NCBI RefSeq assembly: GCF_900104955.1
Contig: NZ_FNSI01000001.1
Span: 5,242,001 to 5,306,000 of the forward strand
DNA: 64,000 bases
Reading direction: 5' to 3'
From: Beijerinckia sp. 28-YEA-48
Lineage (GTDB): Bacteria; Pseudomonadota; Alphaproteobacteria; Rhizobiales; Beijerinckiaceae
Shown here: positions 9,920 to 64,000 of the stretch, one piece after another
Layout: each line of letters starts with the position of its first letter
How positions within the stretch are numbered: the first letter of the stretch is position 1
Made by a program: the position numbers and the translations under genes
Notes under the pieces: generated by a model
Databases searched by the model: none
What the model was told of the DNA's origin: nothing
The model's input: the letters and a program-made list of their open reading frames with translations, nothing else

Positions 9920-12016
9920 GTGAAGATGGCCGGGACTATCGCCGCAAAGCCGGCCAATGCTGCTCCGACCAATGTCCGAGACTTAGCGTTCGCGGCCTGT
10001 ATCGTCTTTATTCTATGCATCTTCTTTCTGCCGATTCCGCCGATCCTGATCGACATCGGACTGGCCTTCTCGATCGCCCTTTCCGTTTTGATCCTGATGG
10101 TCTCGCTGTGGATTCAGAAGCCGCTCGAATTTTCAGCCTTTCCGACCATTCTGCTGGTCGCGACCTTGCTGCGTTTGGCCTTGAACATCGCCACCACGCG
10201 TCTGATCCTGTCGCATGGGTCGGAAGGCGTCACGGCGGCCGGCTATATCATCGGCGGGTTCTCGAAACTCGTCATGAGCGGCGATTTCGTCATCGGGATC
10301 ATCGTCTTTATCATCATCATCACCGTCAATTTTCTCGTCATCACCAAGGGCGCGACGCGTATCGCCGAAGTCGGCGCTCGTTTCGCGCTGGATTCGATCC
10401 CCGGCAAGCAGATGGCCATCGATGCGGATCTATCCGCCGGGTTGATTGACGAGAAAGACGCGCAGCTGCGGCGCCGCGAACTGGAGGAGGAGAGTTCCTT
10501 CTTCGGCTCCATGGACGGTGCTTCCAAGTTCGTCCGTGGCGACGCCATCGCGGGCATCATCATTCTCATCGTCAATATTTTCGGCGGCATCATTCTTGGC
10601 GTCACGCGCCACAACATGGCGATCGGCGATGCTGCCGACGTGTTTGTGAAGCTCTCGGTCGGCGACGGTCTTGTGTCGCAAATTCCGGCGCTGATCGTCT
10701 CGCTTGCCGCCGGTCTCCTCGTCTCCAAGGGCGGCACGCGCGGTTCGGCCGAACAGGCGATCGTCGGGCAGCTCGGAAAATATCCGCGGGCTCTGTTTGT
10801 CGCGTCGAGCCTGATGATGCTTCTGGCGTTGGTGCCCGGCCTGCCGTTCATGCCGTTTGCCTTCCTCAGCCTGCTCCTGGCTTTTGTCAGCTATTCCATT
10901 CCCCGTCGGTTGAACGCGGCGAAAGCCATGGCCGATCGGGACCAGGCGGAAGCGGACCAGCGAGCGGAAACCGAGTCCAAGGAATCGGTGAAGGAGTATT
11001 TGAAAACCGCGGAAATAGAACTTTGCCTTGGCAAACAGCTGAGCGCGAAGATGGCGACCGCGCATGACGAGATCGGGCACAGGGTCGCTAAAATGCGCCG
11101 CAGATTTGCCCAGCAGTATGGATTCGTCGTGCCGGAGATCAAGCTGTCGAGCAGTTTGAGTGTTGGGCCGAAGAGTTATCAGATCAAGATTCACGGCACG
11201 GTTGTCGCCTCGCATGAATTGCGGCTCAACGAAGTACTCGTGGTGATGGGCGATGGTCGCAAGCCGGAGTATCCGGGCGACGAAGTGCGCGAACCGTCGT
11301 TCGGCATGAAGGCGGTCTGGGTTCCGGAAACCTTCTCGAGCGATTTGAAGCAGGATGGCTTCACGCCCGTCGATAATATTTCCATGATGCTGACCCATGT
11401 CAGCGAAGTCGTGCGCAACAATTTTTCGCAACTGCTGTCCTATAAGGACATGCGAAAGCTTCTGGATCGCCTGGATCCCGAATATAAGCGGCTGATCGAC
11501 GACGTTTGCCCGGCTCATATTTCCTACTCCGGGCTTCAAGCGGTCTTGAAGCTGCTGCTGGCGGAACGCGTTTCCATTCGCAATCTCCATCTCATTCTCG
11601 AAGCTGTCGCCGAAATCGCGCCGCATGCGCGTCGGGCCGAACAGGTGGTTGAGCATGTCCGGATGAGAATGGCTCAGCAGATCTGCGGCGATATGAGCGA
11701 GGGCGGCGTTCTAAAAGTCCTGCGGCTTGGAAACCGTTGGGACCTGGCCTTCCATCAGAGCCTCAAGCGCGACGGCAAGGGCGATATTCAGGATTTCGAC
11801 CTTGACCCCCGCATGCTCGAGGAGTTTGGCGCGGATGCCACCACGGCCATCCAGGCGCGTATGGACGAAGGCCATCACTTCGTTCTCGTCTCCACCGCGG
11901 AATCGCGCCCCTATGTCAGGATGATCACCGAGCGACTCTTCGCTTCTCTTCCGGTGCTTTCGCATCTGGAAATCGCACGCGGCATCGAGATCAAAAGCCT
12001 GGGTACGATTTCGTGA
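9920..12016 (+). CDS. flhA: Flagellar export gate protein FlhA
   Basis: This is the 698-residue large export-gate subunit. The N-terminal half has eight predicted membrane helices. The FHIPEP signature region lies at about residues 145-180 ([22 protein letters not shown]). The C-terminal half is the cytoplasmic domain that docks chaperone-substrate complexes. The GTG start is chosen because it is six bases from AGGCAGGAG; an ATG six bases further is possible. A GTGA overlap couples it to fliR. Confidence 0.97.
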
Positions 12017-12768
12017 CAGCTCTTGGGGCGGACATCGTCCTTGTGGCGATGGTCGTCTTCTGCCGCATCGGCGCCTGTCTTATGATCATGCCGGGGTTCT
12101 CCAGTCCGCGAGTGCCGATACGCGTTCGTCTCTTCATCGCCTTGGGCGTGACGCTGGCGCTCACGCCGATGCTCATGGATACGATTCGGCCCGCTGTGCC
12201 AGCGGACGCAGACTATCGTTTTGTCGGCCTCCTCGTGTCCGAAACCCTGATAGGCGGGATGATCGGCGTTCTGGGGCGCTGCTTCTTCGGGGCGCTCGAG
12301 ACGATGGGGGCCGCGGCAGGCATGGCGATCGGCATCAGCAACAATGTCGGTGCGCCTATCAACGAGGATGAGCCTTTGTCACCGTTGGCGGCTCTGATGA
12401 TGTTCGCGGCCACCATGCTGATGTTCGCGACCGATCTGCATCTGGAACTGTTCCGCGCGCTGGTGTCGTCTTACGCGACCATGCCGGTTTCGGAGGGATT
12501 CCATCCGCGATCCGGTCTGGTGCAGGTGACGAGCATTCTGGCCCGCGCTTTTGTGATCGCGCTGCAATTGTGCAGCCCGTTCATCATCTTTGGCATCATC
12601 ATCAATTTGGCGTTTGGATTGCTGAACAAGCTGACGCCACAAGTTCCGGTCTATTTCTTGGCATTGCCGTTCACCTTGGCGGGCGGGCTCATCCTGTTCC
12701 TTTTTACAGGCAAATACATTCTGAGCGGTTTCATCCAGGCCTTTGGCTCCTGGCTCAGCGCGGGGTAG
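12013..12768 (+). CDS. fliR: Flagellar export gate protein FliR
   Basis: This 251-residue inner-membrane gate component has about six hydrophobic segments. Family motifs include the N-terminal [19 protein letters not shown] and the central [21 protein letters not shown]. The start is GTG within the flhA stop, and the next small gene follows after six bases. Confidence 0.95.
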
Positions 12769-12774
12769 TTCGAC

Positions 12775-13173
12775 GTGTCTCGTCGTTTGGAAAGTCTTGA
12801 ACGAATCGAGCAGGCGCAGTCGTGGCGTCATCGCATGCTGGAAGCGCAGATTTTTGAGCTTCAGCGTCGCGAAACGGAGCTGGAGCGGCAAAAGCGCGAG
12901 CTGATGTCGGTCGCCAATGAGTATATCGGCGGCTATGGCAAATTCGTCGAACTGTTGGCCTCGAAAAGCCGACGTTTGGAGGAGGAGCTGGCGCTTGTCC
13001 GGCAAAACCGGCTCAAGCTTGCCGTCCGCTTATTGGACGAAGCCCGCCGTCTGAAGCTGTTCGGCCGATTGCGGGAGCGGGTTGAGGTCGTGGTCCGACG
13101 ACAAGAAGAGGCAAAGGACCTCAATCGGCTGATCGATTTGCTGGGCGCGAAGCAGGCCGCAAGGCTCCCATAA
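12775..13173 (+). CDS. Small coiled-coil flagellar-locus protein, FliJ-like
   Basis: This 132-residue protein is almost entirely charged helix (ERRETELERQKREL, SRRLEEELALVRQNRLKL), the look of FliJ-type export chaperones that stimulate the FliI ATPase. No FliJ is otherwise visible, and fliI is at 17434. The GTG start is six bases after fliR. Assignment rests on length, coiled-coil composition and location; sequence similarity to FliJ is not certain. Confidence 0.6.
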   Translation: MSRRLESLERIEQAQSWRHRMLEAQIFELQRRETELERQKRELMSVANEYIGGYGKFVELLASKSRRLEEELALVRQNRLKLAVRLLDEARRLKLFGRLRERVEVVVRRQEEAKDLNRLIDLLGAKQAARLP

Positions 13174-58543: not shown

Positions 58544-58834
58544 ACCGCCACCTGCATCTTTAAAGGAGTTTGCGACTGGCGAGCCGGATCTAACCAACTC
58601 AAATAGAATGTGAATTTCTAGGCGAGGGCCGTGGAAATGGTGCTTGGTGCACGAAGCGTCATCATGTTTTGTTCAAGCTTGGCGCCGCCCGAGCCGGAGG
58701 GCTTCCCGCCTTGTTCTGTGCGCGGAAGGCTGGAAAAGATCGAAAAAGCCGACCCTTTACACTATATAAGGCTGATCGGCTTTGTGGCTCAGACGGTGCG
58801 TCTGGCGCGCGGGCCTGCATCCGGAGTGGCTTGG
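58544..58834. promoter_or_regulatory. Rrf2 gene promoter/operator region
   Basis: This is 291 bases without a gene, despite an open extension of the next frame. An inverted repeat has arms AAAGCCGA (58745-58752) and TCGGCTTT (58776-58783) around TATATAAGG, a likely -10. Further pairing of CCTT with AAGG makes a dyad centred on about 58764, a probable Rrf2 autoregulatory site. Confidence 0.6.
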
Positions 58835-59281
58835 TTGCTGACAAACAAGGGAAAATACGGGCTCAAAGCCATGGTTCACCTGGCTGGTTTCGAACCGGGC
58901 CAGCCGTCGCTTGTGTCGGACATCGCCACCACCAATAACATTCCCAAGAAGTTCCTGGACGCCATTTTGGGCGAATTGCGCAACGTCGGCCTGGTCCAGT
59001 CGAAGAAGGGCAAGGGCGGCGGCTATACGTTGGCCAAGCCAGCCCATGACATTCGCGTGGGGCAGATCGTGCGGGCTCTCGATGGGCCGCTGGCGCCGAT
59101 CCGCTGCGCCAGCCACAATTATTATCGCTCCTGCGACGATTGCGACGAGAAGAACTGTCCGGTGCGGCTGATGATGTACGAGGTGCGCAACGCCATTTCG
59201 CGCGTCCTCGATGATCGGACATTGGCGGAAATGCGCGCGCTCACCGACGATGAGCGCAGCGACCTGATGTATCATATCTAA
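58835..59281 (+). CDS. Rrf2-family regulator (TTG start)
   Basis: This is a 148-residue winged-helix regulator: LLTNKGKYGLKAMVHLA, then ATTNNIPKKFLDAILGELRNVGLVQSKKGKGGGYTLAKP. A Cys group (RCASHNYYRSCDDCDEKNCP) resembles Fe-S or metal-sensing Rrf2 proteins. The start is placed at TTG, with GGAG eight bases upstream and family-typical length; the frame is open to 58631, but that part has no Rrf2 counterpart. It may control the convergent sulfur-acquisition operon, by location only. Confidence 0.85.
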   Translation: MLTNKGKYGLKAMVHLAGFEPGQPSLVSDIATTNNIPKKFLDAILGELRNVGLVQSKKGKGGGYTLAKPAHDIRVGQIVRALDGPLAPIRCASHNYYRSCDDCDEKNCPVRLMMYEVRNAISRVLDDRTLAEMRALTDDERSDLMYHI

Positions 59282-59336: not shown

Positions 59337-60176
59337 TTAGAAGAAGACGAAGGCTCTGAGCTCGATGCTCTCGCGTGGTTGGGCGTCAGGTGGGGCCAGC
59401 GGATTCTCAAAGGCTGTATGCGGCGCGAAACGCGCCACGGTTGAGCGCGAATCGTAGCATTTGAGGAACAGCACTTCGTCCGTCCGCATGTGCGGATAGA
59501 AGTACCAGCGATGTTGCGGCGAATAGGCCACCGAATAGGTTTCGCCCGTGCGCTGGGTATAGATCAGGTCGGTGCCGATCAGATCATCCGGCGCGATCGT
59601 GCGCGCATCGGCGACAGCGAGCGGTGAATCCTCGACCGGTCCTCGCGTCGGACGCCAGACATTGACGATGGCGAAGGGGCGTTGCGCCAGCTGGTCCGCT
59701 TCATCGCCGAGAAGTTCGCGCAACCGCTTGGGGCCTGATGTGTCGGTGTGGTCGACATGCACGCGTCCGACAGGGCCACGGCCGCTTGTCGCCCGGCCAG
59801 AGCCGAGGACTTCGCCGATCTGCCGGCGCCGGGTGGTGTGATCGAAAATATGCACCCGCGCGGCGCCCGTGCGCAGTTCGAGCAGGCGGGCAGCCTCCGG
59901 ATAATATTTGGACTTCACCTCGTCCTCGTTGAAGAAATCGGTGACATTGCTGTGATGCGGGAAAAGCGCGAAGCCTTCGCGGTCGATGGAGGCGTCGATG
60001 GTGCGGCCATCATAGATGCCGACTGTTTCGGGATCGGGCACCACATTGGTGCGCGGCGTGCCCGGCGGCGGTTCGACCGCGTAATTGAAGCCCCGTTCCG
60101 CCAGCCGATGGCTGTAATTCAGGGCGGCGTGGAGGAGGGGCTGTTGGGCGGTTTTGGCATCGGCATGAATATTCAT
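59337..60176 (-). CDS. CmcJ/NvfI-like iron-dependent oxygenase
   Basis: This 279-residue protein resembles the CmcJ/NvfI/AsaB group of non-heme iron enzymes: VHVDHTDTSG (H-x-D type), NVWRPTRGPVEDSPLAVADA, YFYPHMRTDEVLFLKCYDS and ARFAPHTAFENP. Known members hydroxylate or desaturate secondary metabolites. Here it is the last gene of an ABC-importer operon, so a role in oxidising an imported organosulfur or aromatic compound is inferred. The Met four codons after the first is used. Confidence 0.82.
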   Translation of the reverse strand: MNIHADAKTAQQPLLHAALNYSHRLAERGFNYAVEPPPGTPRTNVVPDPETVGIYDGRTIDASIDREGFALFPHHSNVTDFFNEDEVKSKYYPEAARLLELRTGAARVHIFDHTTRRRQIGEVLGSGRATSGRGPVGRVHVDHTDTSGPKRLRELLGDEADQLAQRPFAIVNVWRPTRGPVEDSPLAVADARTIAPDDLIGTDLIYTQRTGETYSVAYSPQHRWYFYPHMRTDEVLFLKCYDSRSTVARFAPHTAFENPLAPPDAQPRESIELRAFVFF

Positions 60177-60210
60177 GAAGGCCTCCATTCAGCGGCGGGC
60201 GGAGAAAGGG

Positions 60211-60945
60211 TCAGCCGCCGTCTTGCTCGTCAACGCCGAGCGAAAGCAGAATTTGCTTTCGCAACAAAGCGAAGTCCGCGTCGTCTCGTTTGCGTGGGCG
60301 ATCGAGATCGATGCGAAATTCCCGTGTGATGGAGCCTGCTTCCATCAGCAGAATTCTGTCCGCCAGAAGCAGGGCTTCATCGACATCATGGGTGACGAAC
60401 AGGGTCGCGATCCGGTGATGACGCCATAGACGTAATATCTGTTGCTGCATCTTCAACCGTGTCAAGGCATCGAGCGCCGCGAAAGGTTCGTCGAGCAATA
60501 GCAGCCGGGGCGTGCGCACCAAGGCGCGGGCGAGCGCAACGCGCTGTGCTTCGCCACCCGACAAAGTGAGCGGCCAGGCATCGGCGCGTTCGCGCAAGCC
60601 GACCTCGGCCAAGGCGCCGAGCGCCCGCGTGCGCAGATGCCGGCCGGGGCCGGACAGGCCGAGCGTCACATTGCGCCAGACCGATTTCCACGGCAGCAAT
60701 CTTGGATCCTGGAAGCAGATGGCATGTTCTGGGGCGACATCCACATGTCCTTCAGCGCCGCTGTCGAGACCGCCGACGATGCGCAGCAGGGTGGACTTGC
60801 CGCAGCCGCTCTTGCCGACCAGGACGACGAATTCGCCATCCTCGATGACAAGATTGATATCGCGCAGAATCTGCCGGCCGTCGAAAGCGCGTTCGACATT
60901 GTGCAGGATGATTGGGTCGCGAGTGGTATCGAGCGGCATGTTCAA
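60211..60945 (-). CDS. ABC transporter ATPase, sulfonate/nitrate type (SsuB-like)
   Basis: This 244-residue ATPase has Walker A VGKSGCGKST, Q-loop ICFQDPRLLPW, signature LSGGEAQR, Walker B LLLLDEPF and H-loop THDVDEA. The short length and DPRLLPW form match SsuB/TauB. It overlaps the permease by four bases. Confidence 0.93.
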   Translation of the reverse strand: MNMPLDTTRDPIILHNVERAFDGRQILRDINLVIEDGEFVVLVGKSGCGKSTLLRIVGGLDSGAEGHVDVAPEHAICFQDPRLLPWKSVWRNVTLGLSGPGRHLRTRALGALAEVGLRERADAWPLTLSGGEAQRVALARALVRTPRLLLLDEPFAALDALTRLKMQQQILRLWRHHRIATLFVTHDVDEALLLADRILLMEAGSITREFRIDLDRPRKRDDADFALLRKQILLSLGVDEQDGG

Positions 60946-61709
60946 GCGCCTTTGAAAGAGCGTTGCCAGCGCAGCGCCCGTTGTTCGATCAACCGGACCA
61001 GGGCGTCGGCGAGAACGCCGATCACCGCATAGATGGCGAGCGCGGTCATGATCACCGAGGTTTGCGCCAGTTCATTGGCCTGGACGATCAGCCAGCCAAG
61101 TCCTGACGACGAATTGATCTGCTCGGCGACGACGAGGCTGAGCCAGGAGATGCCGATGGCATAGCGCAGGCCGACGAGCGCCGAGGGCAAGGCGGCGGGA
61201 AAGATGATGTCGCGCACCAAGCGCCATTGCGATAGCTTGTAGCTGCGGCCCAATTCGATCAGCCGCTCATCGACGCTGCGGATGCCTTTGAAGACATTCA
61301 GATAGACCGGAAAGAAGGAGCCGAGCGCGACAAGCAGGATGCGCGGCGTCTCGCCCAGGCCGAACCAGAGAATGAACAGCGGCACGAGGCCAAGGAAGGG
61401 CAGGGTGCGGATCGCCTGAATGGTCGAATCCACCGCATCCTCGCCGACCTTCGACAGGCCGGCGAAAATGCCTGCCGCGAGCGCCGCCGTGGTGCCAACG
61501 AACAGGCCGAAGGCGGCACGCCACAAGGATATGCCGAGATGGGTGGTCAACTGGCCATTGCTGGCGAGCGTCCCCAAGGACACGCCAATGTCATAGGGCG
61601 AGGAACTGAAGCGGCGGTTGATCACGCCATAGCTCGCCAGCACTTGCCAGATCACGAGAATGGCCAGGGGCACGATGGCGCGGCGCAAAGGGCGGCTGAG
61701 AGCGTTCAT
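60942..61709 (-). CDS. ABC transporter permease, SsuC-like
   Basis: This 255-residue inner-membrane protein has about six helices and the EAA-like loop ELGRSYKLSQWRLVRDIIFPAALP. It matches the sulfonate/nitrate/taurine permease family. The Met at 61709 overlaps the binding-protein stop (ATGA). The long open frame upstream lies inside the binding-protein gene and is rejected. Confidence 0.92.
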   Translation of the reverse strand: MNALSRPLRRAIVPLAILVIWQVLASYGVINRRFSSSPYDIGVSLGTLASNGQLTTHLGISLWRAAFGLFVGTTAALAAGIFAGLSKVGEDAVDSTIQAIRTLPFLGLVPLFILWFGLGETPRILLVALGSFFPVYLNVFKGIRSVDERLIELGRSYKLSQWRLVRDIIFPAALPSALVGLRYAIGISWLSLVVAEQINSSSGLGWLIVQANELAQTSVIMTALAIYAVIGVLADALVRLIEQRALRWQRSFKGA

Positions 61710-62686
61710 GGCGCGATGGAACCGTTGAACTGATCGGTGAAGGACAGCGACGCGTCGAGGCGTTTGCCGATCAGGCCTTGCTCGAAGAAGACATCGGAGA
61801 TTTTCTGGTTGTTGGCGCGCAACCGGTCGCCAATCAGTGCCAGCCGAGCGGGGCGCTTGCGTTCGGCGATGAGGGCAATCTCGGGATCGATCCGCAGCAG
61901 CTCCGCCACCGCTTTGGCGCGTTCTTCCGGTTTCGCATGGCCCCAAGCGACATGTTTCGCCAGGGCCGCGACGAAAGCGGCGATGGCTGCGTTCTTATTG
62001 GTGATCGCCGCATCGCTGGCGATGTAATAGAGCGGGTTTTCCGCGCCGACCTCGGCGCCGCTGGCGAGCCGCCGGCTGCCGGAGCGCTCGAACGCGGTGA
62101 GCAAAGTGTCGATGGCGATGGCGGCATCGATGCCGCCGGTTTCGAGTACAGCCTGCACATTGGTGCCTGGCGGCAGGAAGATGTGCTGGACCTGATCGGG
62201 TTTGAGCCCAGCTTTCTCCAAGGTCTTCAGCAACACCCAATGGGAATTGGTGCTGCGCGTATAGGAAATTTTCTTGCCCTTCAGGTCGGCGAGGTTGGCG
62301 ATGGTCGATTTGTTATCGACCAGAATGCCTTGGCCTTCGCCCCAAGGCTCGGTCGCGGCGATGATCTTGAACGGAATGTCGGCCGATTGAGCGACAACGG
62401 GGCCGACTTCGCCCAGCTCGCCGATATCGAGTTCGCCGGCATTCAGCGCCGAAATGATCTGCGGCGAGCCGCCGTTGAACGGCACGATCTCAAACGAGAA
62501 ACCGTTGAACGTGTCGTCGCCATTGGCTTTGAACGTGGCGGCAAAACCGAAGGTGTTGCTGGTGCCGATGCGCAACCGTTTGGGATCGGCCCGCCCTGTC
62601 TGTCCGCGCGCGGCAGGGGCAGCCGAAACGGCGAGCGTGGCAAGCGACGCCAGCAGCGCCGTCCTGCGAGACACAAACATCATCAA
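61706..62686 (-). CDS. ABC substrate-binding protein, aliphatic-sulfonate type (copy 1)
   Basis: This 326-residue SsuA-like protein has a Tat-like leader (SRRTALLASLATLAVSAAPAARG). Binding-fold motifs are GTSNTFGFAATFKANGDD, ELDIGELGEVGPVVAQSADIP and LPPGTNVQAVLETGGIDAAI. It is the first gene of the SBP-permease-ATPase-CmcJ operon. It is clearly paralogous to the divergent gene at 62777. Confidence 0.92.
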   Translation of the reverse strand: MMMFVSRRTALLASLATLAVSAAPAARGQTGRADPKRLRIGTSNTFGFAATFKANGDDTFNGFSFEIVPFNGGSPQIISALNAGELDIGELGEVGPVVAQSADIPFKIIAATEPWGEGQGILVDNKSTIANLADLKGKKISYTRSTNSHWVLLKTLEKAGLKPDQVQHIFLPPGTNVQAVLETGGIDAAIAIDTLLTAFERSGSRRLASGAEVGAENPLYYIASDAAITNKNAAIAAFVAALAKHVAWGHAKPEERAKAVAELLRIDPEIALIAERKRPARLALIGDRLRANNQKISDVFFEQGLIGKRLDASLSFTDQFNGSIAP

Positions 62687-62721
62687 ACCTCCACGCTTTC
62701 AACAAGGCGAGCATTGCAGGT

Positions 62722-62750
62722 TTGACACTAAAGTCAAGTTAGTCTATCAA
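62722..62750 (+). promoter_or_regulatory. Sigma-70-like promoter for the second binding protein
   Basis: TTGACA (62722-62727), a 17-base spacer and TATCAA (62745-62750) fit a housekeeping promoter reading into 62777. The -35 overlaps TTGAC-N6-GTCAA, a possible operator. The minus-strand gene starts only 36 bases away. Confidence 0.6.
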
Positions 62751-62776
62751 AATTATATATTAATTAGGAGGCTCGT

Positions 62777-63733
62777 TTGTCCGCAGATATTACCCGTCGG
62801 TCTCTTACCGCCGCGATGGCTTTGGGTCCGTTCCTGTCCATCGCGCGGGCGCAGGGTCAGCGGCCTGTAAAAGTCGGTACCAATAATATCTACGGGGTGG
62901 CGGCGACCTTCCCGGCCAATGGCGATGACAAGCCGGCTGATGGCGCGATCGAGATCATCCGCTTCAACAGCGTGCCGGCGATGCTGCAGGCGTTGGACGC
63001 GGGCGAGCTCGATGTGGCCGAAGTCGGCGAGGTTGGTCCGGTCGTTGCCCAGGCTGCCGGCATTCCCATCAAGATCGTCGCCGCCACGCAGCCCTGGCCC
63101 GAGGGTGAGGCGATCATCGTCTACAAAACCTCGTCGATCCGCAGCGTGAAGGAACTCGTCGGCAAGAAGGTGTCTTATCCGCGCGCCACCAATGCGCAAT
63201 GGCTGCTGACGAAAGCGCTGCGCGCCGAAGGGCTGAAGATCACCGATGTGGTTTCGGTCACTCTGCCGGCGGGCACCAATATTCTGGCGGTGCTTGAGAC
63301 GGGTGGTGTCGATGCCTCGGTCTTCATCGATGCGTCGTTGTCGCAATATGAGGCGGAAGGCGCACGACGCATTCTCAATGCGGGCGAGGCCGGATGTGAC
63401 AATTCGCTGTTCTATATCGCGACGGAAAAAGCCGTGGCGCAGCAGCGCGCCGGTGTCGGCCTCTTCGTGCGGCAATTGCACCGTCATCTGGCCTGGGCAC
63501 GTAACAATCAGGAGACGCGGGCCCGCGCGGTGGCCGAGCTGCTGCGCATTCCCTATGACGTCGCTTTGGCCTCCGAGCGCAAGCGACCGGCAGGCCTGCG
63601 CCCGATCGATCGGGCGCTGATCGTCAACGGGCAGGACATCGCCGACACGTTCCTGGCTCAGGCGGTCATTCCGCAGCCGATCAAAGTCGATTCAACTTTC
63701 ACCGAAGAGTTCAACGCCTTCATCGGCGCGTGA
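62777..63733 (+). CDS. ABC substrate-binding protein, aliphatic-sulfonate type (copy 2, TTG start)
   Basis: This 318-residue SsuA-like protein has a Tat-like leader (TRRSLTAAMALGPFLSIARAQG). It shares block after block with the protein at 61706: GTNNIYGVAATFPANGDD, GELDVAEVGEVGPVVAQAAGIP, LPAGTNILAVLETGGVDASV. The TTG start is fixed by AGGAGG five bases upstream (62766-62771). It has no own permease or ATPase here, so it may share those of the divergent operon. Confidence 0.9.
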   Translation: MSADITRRSLTAAMALGPFLSIARAQGQRPVKVGTNNIYGVAATFPANGDDKPADGAIEIIRFNSVPAMLQALDAGELDVAEVGEVGPVVAQAAGIPIKIVAATQPWPEGEAIIVYKTSSIRSVKELVGKKVSYPRATNAQWLLTKALRAEGLKITDVVSVTLPAGTNILAVLETGGVDASVFIDASLSQYEAEGARRILNAGEAGCDNSLFYIATEKAVAQQRAGVGLFVRQLHRHLAWARNNQETRARAVAELLRIPYDVALASERKRPAGLRPIDRALIVNGQDIADTFLAQAVIPQPIKVDSTFTEEFNAFIGA

Positions 63734-63746
63734 TCGGAGCTATCCC

Positions 63747-64000
63747 ATGGCCAGTCATCTGAAAGTGGTTCAAAGCGTTCCCGCTGAGCCGGGCGTGCAT
63801 GTCATTCGTTCCGACGCGGAAGCGCTCGACGTCGTGGGGCGGCTTGCGGCGAGCTTCCGCACGGGCGCCATTGCCCGCGACCAGAAGCGTATTCTGCCTC
63901 GTGAAGAGATCGAAGCGCTGACGCAGGCTGGCTTCTTCGGTATTGCCGTGCCGAAAGAGCATGGTGGCGCCGATGTGTCCGCCGTGACCGTCTCCAAAGT
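63747..64000 (+). CDS. SfnB-like sulfur-acquisition flavin monooxygenase (3' end outside window)
   Basis: The first 84 codons read HVIRSDAEALDVVGRLAASF, then RDQKRILPREEIEALTQAGFFGIAVPKEHGGADVSAVT. This is the start of the acyl-CoA-dehydrogenase-like SfnB/DszC group, which desulfurises sulfones or aromatic thioethers with reduced flavin. GGAG precedes the ATG. The frame runs off the right edge. With the binding protein before it, it supports an organosulfur function. Confidence 0.8.
   Translation, partial: MASHLKVVQSVPAEPGVHVIRSDAEALDVVGRLAASFRTGAIARDQKRILPREEIEALTQAGFFGIAVPKEHGGADVSAVTVSK

What the first reader, a model, noticed from the sequence alone, without database searches (positions are those of the whole stretch)
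59337..64000. Unusual organosulfur-type island: ABC importer with CmcJ-like oxygenase, divergent paralogous receptor and SfnB-like monooxygenase
Two clearly duplicated sulfonate-type binding proteins diverge from one promoter region. One heads a permease-ATPase-CmcJ/NvfI-like operon; the other precedes a flavin monooxygenase of the sulfone-desulfurising group. A secondary-metabolism-type oxygenase within a sulfur importer operon is not a layout I know. It may be a system taking two related substrates through one channel and oxidising them by two chemistries.
Basis: partly seen in the sequence, partly recalled or inferred. Interest (0 to 1): 0.7.

Follow-up and report, generated by a model that had tools for sequence, protein, structure and literature searches.

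The report
Sulfur-scavenging island with unexpected iron oxygenase
A bacterium related to rhizobia carries two back-to-back operons that look built to scavenge sulfur from organic compounds, and one of them ends with an iron-dependent oxygenase of a family better known from antibiotic and fungal natural-product pathways, a pairing that recurs in one part of that family in other bacteria.

Summary
Four tightly packed minus-strand genes encode a sulfonate-type receptor, permease, ATPase and a CmcJ/NvfI-family Fe/2-oxoglutarate oxygenase. A paralogous receptor (48% identical) diverges 90 bp away and heads SBP2-sfnB-sfnG-like-amidohydrolase, most of it beyond the window. The ssu/sfn part is an ordinary organosulfur island: six of six opened plasmid relatives of the SfnG-like enzyme lie in such islands. 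The oxygenase is the interesting part. Its link to sulfur is neither unique nor general. Its nearest relative (82%) lacks the ssu/sfn genes, apparently by loss, yet keeps the oxygenase, and the family as a whole is not enriched near sulfur genes (9/111 loci versus 2/40 random windows). The link is confined to a subset marked by His/Gln after the HxD iron ligands: 21/50 loci versus 3/106 others. An importer gene plus a desulfurising-type oxygenase was found in 14/50, 0/106 and 0/40 controls. The mark was chosen post hoc; a small out-of-sample test gave 3/8, below my stated >50%. Best reading: an unrecognised sulfur-scavenging dioxygenase that works like TauD but belongs to another family. Substrate and C-S cleavage are inferred, not shown.

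The parts
59337..60188 (-). CmcJ/NvfI-family Fe(II)/2-oxoglutarate oxygenase (P0001, 283 aa); Fe ligands H144, D146, H257; invariant R272 and R278
   Evidence: NF041278 303 bits, cut-off 80; NvfI E about 2e-33; AF2 pLDDT 83.6; Foldseek NvfI TM 0.79-0.84; the five residues invariant in 156/156 rows
60211..60945 (-). SsuB-type ATPase (P0005)
   Evidence: NF008420 255.9 bits, below the cut-off of 395
60942..61709 (-). SsuC-type permease (ATG at 61709, overlapping the SBP1 stop)
   Evidence: NF008470 228.9 bits, below the cut-off of 347; start inferred from the overlap
61706..62686 (-). SBP1, sulfonate-type binding protein (P0002)
   Evidence: TIGR01728 161.8 bits, cut-off 163.5; PDB 2x26 E 1.4e-27
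62687..62776 (.). 90-bp divergent intergenic region; an 11-nt imperfect inverted repeat (62683-62693 / 62715-62725) overlaps its SBP1 end
   Evidence: no sigma-70-like match; the repeat may be chance
62777..63733 (+). SBP2, paralogous sulfonate-type binding protein (P0003), TTG start with AGGAGG
   Evidence: 48% identity to SBP1; TIGR01728 139.5 bits, below the cut-off; PDB 2x26 E 3.5e-27
63747..64000 (+). SfnB-family flavin monooxygenase; the gene runs to 64976 (L009:5747-6976)
   Evidence: TIGR04022 449.6 bits, cut-off 430.9; DszC-type structures. In L009 an SfnG-like LLM (65010-66137) and an amidohydrolase (66149-67090) follow
58631..59281 (+). Rrf2-family regulator, convergent with the oxygenase gene; also near it in L021 and L022
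   Evidence: PF02082 and TIGR00738 above cut-off; synteny

Best explanation
This is an organosulfur acquisition island. A sulfonate-type ABC importer, probably served by two paralogous receptors, brings in anionic organosulfur compounds. The flavin enzymes SfnB and the SfnG-like LLM oxidise and desulfurise one class of substrate. The CmcJ/NvfI-family Fe(II)/2OG oxygenase at the end of the importer operon works like TauD or AtsK: it hydroxylates carbon next to sulfur in another imported compound so that sulfite (or a sulfinate) is released. Shown: gene content, operon packing, receptor paralogy, intact Fe/2OG residues, predicted NvfI fold, and recurrence of this oxygenase subset beside sulfur genes in other lineages. 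Inferred: co-transcription, sharing of the permease by both receptors, substrate, C-S cleavage, and induction by sulfur limitation.
For: SfnB above cut-off and an SfnG/SsuD-like LLM. 6 of 6 opened plasmid relatives of the SfnG-like enzyme (13 records matched) lie in organosulfur islands. Oxygenase 22 bp behind ssuB. 6 of 6 opened plasmid relatives of the oxygenase at 42-46% identity (12 of the 23 matched records are in that range) score as sulfur-linked (L132-L137). Same order receptor-permease-ATPase-(CHRD gene)-oxygenase in L184. Oxygenase with SsuC, SsuB, SfnG-like (50%), SfnB-like and serine acetyltransferase in L057 and L186; L185 alike without the transferase within 8.5 kb. Caballeronia plasmid L134: LLM, SfnB-like, CmcJ, TauD, receptor, two permeases, ATPase. 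Variovorax L133: LLM, CysB regulator, TauD, rhodanese, serine acetyltransferase, family 2A encapsulin with cysteine desulfurase. L191 beside cysH, cysD and cysN/C; L193 beside soxA, soxZ and a SoxY paralogue; L254 two genes from a DszB-like desulfinase. Counts: residue-147 H/Q rows 21/50 with at least 2 sulfur families (14/43 without seven panel-source loci, p 0.0013 versus 2/40), other rows 3/106; strict importer gene plus LLM/SfnB/TauD 14/50, 0/106, 0/40, 10/43 without panel sources (p 0.0008 versus 0/40); collapsed at 80% identity 14/21 versus 3/93 clusters, strict 9/21 versus 0/93. The label is clustered on the tree (10 changes versus 19 shuffled, 0/500). Catalytic residues invariant in 156/156 rows. 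A 44-bp collinear ssuB-like remnant in L021 (41/44 identical; alignment score 38 versus at most 14 in 30 shuffles) shows that an ssuB-like gene lay there before.
Against: The family as a whole is not enriched near sulfur genes: 9/111 non-panel loci versus 2/40 (Fisher p 0.40); 9/78 if only loci with 5 kb on both sides count. L021 (82% identical oxygenase) lacks importer and sfn genes yet keeps an intact oxygenase (pairwise dN/dS 0.165; distance to L022 not raised, dN 0.246 versus 0.256), next to the amidohydrolase and near a VanA-type Rieske gene. L022 (67%) scored one family only, an NtaA/DmoA-type LLM. All 15 rows of the Reyranella-type cluster of the H/Q subset are negative, as are five of the rows closest to L052 and L055. 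The residue-147 split was chosen after seeing the data, seven loci supplied panel queries, the cys/sox queries were added post hoc, and a cluster counted if any member scored. The out-of-sample test gave 3/8 H/Q loci (p 0.027 versus 2/40) and 0/2 others, below my stated >50%. SfnG, SsuA-family, SsuB and SsuC cut-offs are not met.
Confidence: 0.55

Rival explanations
1. The oxygenase is a passenger. It belongs with the Rrf2 regulator and the amidohydrolase in a different, perhaps aromatic or secondary-metabolite, pathway, and the ssu/sfn block merely sits between them.
For: L021 keeps Rrf2, oxygenase and amidohydrolase without the block, near a VanA-type Rieske oxygenase; family-wide no enrichment; the six opened distant plasmid relatives (30-35%) show no sulfonate importer or sfn genes.
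Against: The ssuB-like remnant points to loss rather than original absence; tight operon packing; the same pairing recurs in unrelated lineages within the H/Q subset. The high identity of the remnant (93% against about 80% for the flanking genes) suggests a recent loss, so retention in L021 says little.
Confidence: 0.25
2. The oxygenase belongs to the sulfur-starvation regulon but does not cleave C-S bonds: it modifies a thiol or sulfur-bearing metabolite (as CmcJ is thought to hydroxylate a cephem), for storage, signalling or sparing of sulfur.
For: Partners vary widely (importers, cysHDN, sox, encapsulin with cysteine desulfurase, serine acetyltransferase, GST), more as in a shared regulon than a shared substrate.
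Against: Importer gene plus desulfurising-type oxygenase is frequent (14/50); TauD-type genes lie alongside in L133, L134 and L135, which fits one more scavenging enzyme.
Confidence: 0.15
3. The importer does not serve sulfur nutrition but carries another anion or aromatic compound, and the SfnB/SfnG-like enzymes are carbon-catabolic.
For: Genes beyond the island (MmgE/PrpD, ScfR regulator, FAD_binding_3 monooxygenase; aldehyde dehydrogenase by eye) are not sulfur genes; no flavin reductase recognised nearby; importer parts fall below the Ssu cut-offs.
Against: SfnB passes its sulfur-acquisition equivalog cut-off; 6 of 6 opened SfnG-like relatives lie in organosulfur islands.
Confidence: 0.05

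Closest known systems
sfn/msu dimethylsulfone and methanesulfonate loci of Pseudomonas (SfnG, MsuC, MsuD, MsuE; sfnAB with ABC transporters in P. putida; passages of PMC8234197 seen)
   Same: SfnB-type and LLM monooxygenases, with ABC importer genes nearby
   Different: the SfnG-like enzyme scores below the SfnG cut-off; no MsuE over its cut-off in the genome; a receptor and an amidohydrolase in the operon; a CmcJ-family oxygenase added
TauABCD and SsuEADCB sulfonate systems (recalled)
   Same: receptor, permease and ATPase followed by an Fe/2OG oxygenase, as in tauABCD
   Different: the oxygenase is of the CmcJ/NvfI family, not TauD: no Pfam match at E 0.001
CmcJ (cephamycin), NvfI (novofumigatonin), CTB9 (cercosporin)
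   Same: sequence family (CmcJ and NvfI by the name of NF041278), fold, iron and 2OG residues
   Different: those act in natural product pathways; this one ends a sulfonate-type importer operon; the residue matching NvfI His138 is His or Gln in its subset (His here) and mostly Tyr in the rest of the bacterial rows
Caballeronia zhejiangensis p2 locus (L134) and locus L184 of an unnamed relative
   Same: CmcJ-family gene beside a sulfonate-type importer; L134 also has LLM and SfnB-like genes
   Different: more distant receptors; L134 also has TauD; L184 has FrdA-like flavoproteins

Membership tests
CmcJ/NvfI family oxidoreductase (NF041278) | score over the curated cut-off | tested here: met
   303 versus 80 bits
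CmcJ/NvfI family oxidoreductase (NF041278) | HxD...H iron site and conserved C-terminal Arg | tested here: met
   H144, D146, H257, R272, R278 invariant in 156/156 rows; the passage of PMC8292354 gives residues 135, 137 and 250 of NvfI; that 137 is Asp and 250 His I assigned from the alignment
CmcJ/NvfI family oxidoreductase (NF041278) | Fe(II)/2OG-dependent oxygenation | not testable with these tools
   needs enzymology
TauD/AtsK sulfonate and sulfate-ester dioxygenases | TauD-type sequence family | tested here: not met
   no Pfam family for P0001 at E 0.001; only NF041278 in NCBIfam
SfnB | TIGR04022 equivalog cut-off | tested here: met
   449.6 versus 430.9 bits
SfnG dimethylsulfone monooxygenase | TIGR04021 equivalog cut-off | tested here: not met
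   204.5 versus 382.95 bits
SsuABC aliphatic sulfonate importer | SsuA family, SsuB and SsuC model cut-offs | tested here: not met
   161.8 and 139.5 versus 163.5; 255.9 versus 395; 228.9 versus 347 bits
SsuABC aliphatic sulfonate importer | sulfonate binding and transport | not testable with these tools
   needs ligand and growth assays
two-component flavin monooxygenase system | flavin reductase encoded alongside | tested here: inconclusive
   none recognised by eye among listed ORFs (ORFs under 170 aa beyond the window not listed); MsuE model below cut-off in the genome; other reductase families not searched

The most novel reading that the evidence does not exclude
A subset of the CmcJ/NvfI family (His/Gln after the HxD motif) is a new class of bacterial sulfur-scavenging Fe/2OG dioxygenase, separate from TauD/AtsK, that frees sulfur from imported organosulfur compounds in several lineages of Alpha- and Betaproteobacteria.
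Probability: 0.4. Interest if true: 0.7.

Novelty: new variant of a known kind. Interest (0 to 1): 0.5.

Why it matters
If true, it gives a physiological role to a part of an oxygenase family that is common in bacteria (84 of 385 genomes sampled from the class have a match) but known from natural product pathways. It would add a further oxygenase type to organosulfur scavenging besides the flavin enzymes and TauD, and offers a concrete candidate for sulfur sources whose desulfurising enzyme is unknown. The test is simple: sulfite release by one soluble enzyme.

Tried and rejected
Rejected: that this layout is unique to the window (it recurs); that the whole CmcJ/NvfI family is sulfur-linked (9/111 versus 2/40, p 0.40); that the ssu/sfn block was simply inserted into the window's genome (the L021 remnant points to loss); SfnG or SsuABC membership proper (cut-offs not met). 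Rfam on L009: 0 matches. P0002 in plasmids at E 1e-50: no match. Promoter scan: nothing. Distant plasmid relatives of the oxygenase (30-35%): six opened (L138-L143), none with sulfonate importer or sfn genes annotated, though L139 has an LLM-class gene beside it; eleven of the 23 plasmid records were not opened. Two opened plasmid records carry no annotation (L135, L137) and were scored with the panel instead. The relative-rate test of the oxygenase has little power because the loss looks recent. The prediction (more than half of H/Q loci would score) failed: 3 of 8 did, although 3/8 exceeds 2/40 (p 0.027). Before the second tree 23 long-branch rows were dropped (133 of 156 kept). The first ORF calls followed antisense frames in GC-rich loci, so neighbour scoring was redone with tblastn.
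Full report
What is there. The window is G000:C1:5242001-5306000 of a 6.4-Mb genome. Two relatives in its genus could be matched to named records by contig coordinates: Rhizobiales bacterium 62-17 (L021, G002) and Roseiarcaceae bacterium H3SJ34-1 (L022, G001). On the minus strand lie a sulfonate-type receptor (SBP1, 62686-61706), a permease, an ATPase and, 22 bp after the ATPase stop, a 283-aa oxygenase (60188-59337). On the plus strand a second receptor (SBP2, 62777-63733) is followed by sfnB (63747-64976), an SfnG-like LLM monooxygenase (65010-66137) and an amidohydrolase (66149-67090), with gaps of 13, 33 and 11 bp. SBP1 and SBP2 are 48% identical over 294 aa. SfnB and the CmcJ/NvfI assignment pass curated cut-offs; SfnG and the SsuA-family, SsuB and SsuC models do not. 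An Rrf2-type regulator (58631-59281) converges on the oxygenase gene.

The oxygenase. Sequence and fold place it with NvfI (E about 2e-33; AF2 model from a 13-row alignment, mean pLDDT 83.6; Foldseek NvfI TM 0.79-0.84, then CTB9, then PtlH only at E 4.8e-5). The residues matching the iron ligands (H144, D146, H257), and R272 and R278, are invariant in 156 of 156 family rows. NvfI residues come from passages of PMC8292354: the passage names positions 135, 137 and 250; my alignment makes 137 Asp and 250 His, the reverse of its wording. A passage of the 2018 review PMC6097109 says that no biochemical study of recombinant CmcJ had been reported.

Does the oxygenase belong to the importer? Two near relatives argue against a fixed link. 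L021 has Rrf2, oxygenase (82%) and amidohydrolase (87%) with no ssu or sfn gene between them. But between oxygenase and amidohydrolase it carries a 44-bp piece 41/44 identical to the window's ssuB, in register (alignment score 38; 30 shuffles of the 186-bp spacer reached at most 14). So an ssuB-like gene once lay there; that the whole block did, and was lost, is inference. The window's SfnG-like enzyme has no ortholog in either relative (best 36%). The oxygenases of window and L021 are mutually constrained (pairwise dN/dS 0.165). In L022 an NtaA/DmoA-type LLM monooxygenase diverges from the oxygenase.

Wider survey. NF041278 matches were found in 28/297 genomes sampled from the order, 84/385 from the class and 25/398 from the phylum (26, 83 and 24 over the cut-off; the samples overlap). 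Two or more sulfur families were found in 14/116 loci (9/111 without five loci that had supplied panel queries; 9/78 with 5 kb on both sides) and in 2/40 controls: no enrichment overall (p 0.40 for 9/111). The hits were clustered on the protein tree, 7 changes against a shuffled mean of 13.4 (0/500). Forty further loci gave 7/40, of which 6 fell among the ten closest relatives in the family of G085; ten Burkholderiales-order loci fetched in the same call gave 0/10. On a 133-row tree (23 long-branch rows dropped) the label needs 10 changes against 19 (0/500).

A sequence mark. Position 147, next to the iron ligand D146 and equivalent to NvfI His138 that contacts substrate, is His or Gln in 50 of 156 rows and Tyr in 98 of the other 106. 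The panel was extended by cysN/D/H and soxA/Y/Z after these were seen beside L191 and L193. H/Q rows then scored 21/50 (14/43 without seven panel-source loci, p 0.0013 versus 2/40), other rows 3/106. A stricter test, receptor or permease plus LLM, SfnB or TauD, gave 14/50, 0/106 and 0/40; 10/43 without panel sources (p 0.0008 versus 0/40). Collapsed at 80% identity, with a cluster counted if any member scores, 14/21 H/Q clusters and 3/93 others score; strict 9/21 and 0/93. The largest H/Q cluster, 15 Reyranella-type rows, is wholly negative. The mark is confounded with ancestry and was chosen after the fact.

Out-of-sample check. Before fetching I predicted that more than half of new H/Q loci and under 15% of others would score. 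Ten of the twenty chosen loci could be fetched, with about 6 kb per side. H/Q: 3/8; Tyr: 0/2. The prediction failed as stated; 3/8 still exceeds 2/40 (p 0.027). Two of the five that missed have sulfur links outside the scoring rule: L250 has receptor, ATPase and permease hits with the receptor under the score threshold, and L254 a DszB-like desulfinase two genes away (PDB 2de2, E 6e-19). L253 has a GST and a disulfide reductase beside the oxygenase. L249 showed nothing of the kind; L256 was not resolved.

Telling neighbourhoods. L184: receptor, permease, ATPase, FrdA-like flavoprotein, ferredoxin, receptor, permease, ATPase, CHRD protein, oxygenase, all on one strand (first receptor and ferredoxin named by eye). 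L057 and L186: oxygenase with LLM, SfnG-like (50%), SsuC, SsuB, SfnB-like and serine acetyltransferase; L185 alike but without the transferase within 8.5 kb. L134 (Caballeronia): LLM, SfnB-like, TauD and a sulfonate-type importer. L131: importer, TauD, LLM, and the family 2A encapsulin, cysteine desulfurase, rhodanese and serine acetyltransferase set; L133 (Variovorax) has that set with TauD and LLM but no sulfonate-type importer in view. L136 (Geminicoccaceae): receptors, permease, ATPase and LLM, with a GST beside the oxygenase.

The sfn side. Thirteen plasmid records carry an SfnG-like relative at E 1e-60. The six I opened all lie in organosulfur islands with a sulfonate-type or unspecified ABC receptor gene; four show permease and ATPase genes, four show SfnB or acyl-CoA dehydrogenase-type genes, one msuE. 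In one (L224) a CmcJ gene lies about 13 kb away; none is annotated in the other five stretches. L229 shows two receptors with one permease/ATPase set, as here. So this half is an ordinary sfn/ssu variant.

Literature. In the library searched, only 2 papers hold both CmcJ and sulfonate, neither on sulfur acquisition by title; cephem-methoxylase with sulfur gave 0, and alone 7. Wider searches were seen only as capped listings (30 of 3,086, many on the thumb joint of the same abbreviation; 57: 20 of 779; 61: 20 of 27; 104: 15 of 36, none of the 15 holding CmcJ or NvfI; 105: 14 of 14). No listed paper links this family to sulfur acquisition; most subscription papers are not in that library. The comparator is the Pseudomonas sfn/msu system (PMC8234197, passages).

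Verdict. Observation confirmed; importer plus SfnB plus SfnG-like is known in kind; the oxygenase link is real in a subset of the family but loose, and its chemistry is inferred. My estimate is 0.55 for a sulfur-scavenging role with TauD-like chemistry.

Noticed in passing
L021:9397-9440: 44-bp ssuB-like remnant between oxygenase and amidohydrolase, pointing to loss of the ssu/sfn block in a close relative.
   Followed up: yes
window 58631-59281: Rrf2 regulator with four clustered cysteines (by eye), conserved near the oxygenase in L021 and L022, and 52% identical beside it in L187; possibly an Fe-S or thiol sensor.
   Followed up: partly
L133:11758-14542; L131; L257: CmcJ-family genes near family 2A encapsulin genes (with cysteine desulfurase in L133 and L131), a sulfur-storage compartment (role recalled).
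   Followed up: partly
L193:9548-11141: soxA, soxZ and a SoxY paralogue directly beside a CmcJ-family gene.
   Followed up: partly
L184:2867-4824 and 11440-13107: FrdA-like flavoproteins (the second by eye) and a ferredoxin within a double sulfonate-type importer island; possibly another desulfonation route.
   Followed up: no
L069-L072, L139: A distant CmcJ branch sits directly before an LLM-class oxidoreductase (59-66% to that of L139 in the four fetched loci); L070 and L072 have SsuC-type hits only about 7 kb off.
   Followed up: no
L103 (second CmcJ hit about 1 kb away): Tandem CmcJ-family paralogues on one strand; one search lists a like pair in G725.
   Followed up: no
L254:8591-9631: DszB-like desulfinase two genes from a CmcJ-family gene.
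   Followed up: partly
window 62683-62725: 11-nt imperfect inverted repeat at the start of SBP1, a possible operator or chance.
   Followed up: no
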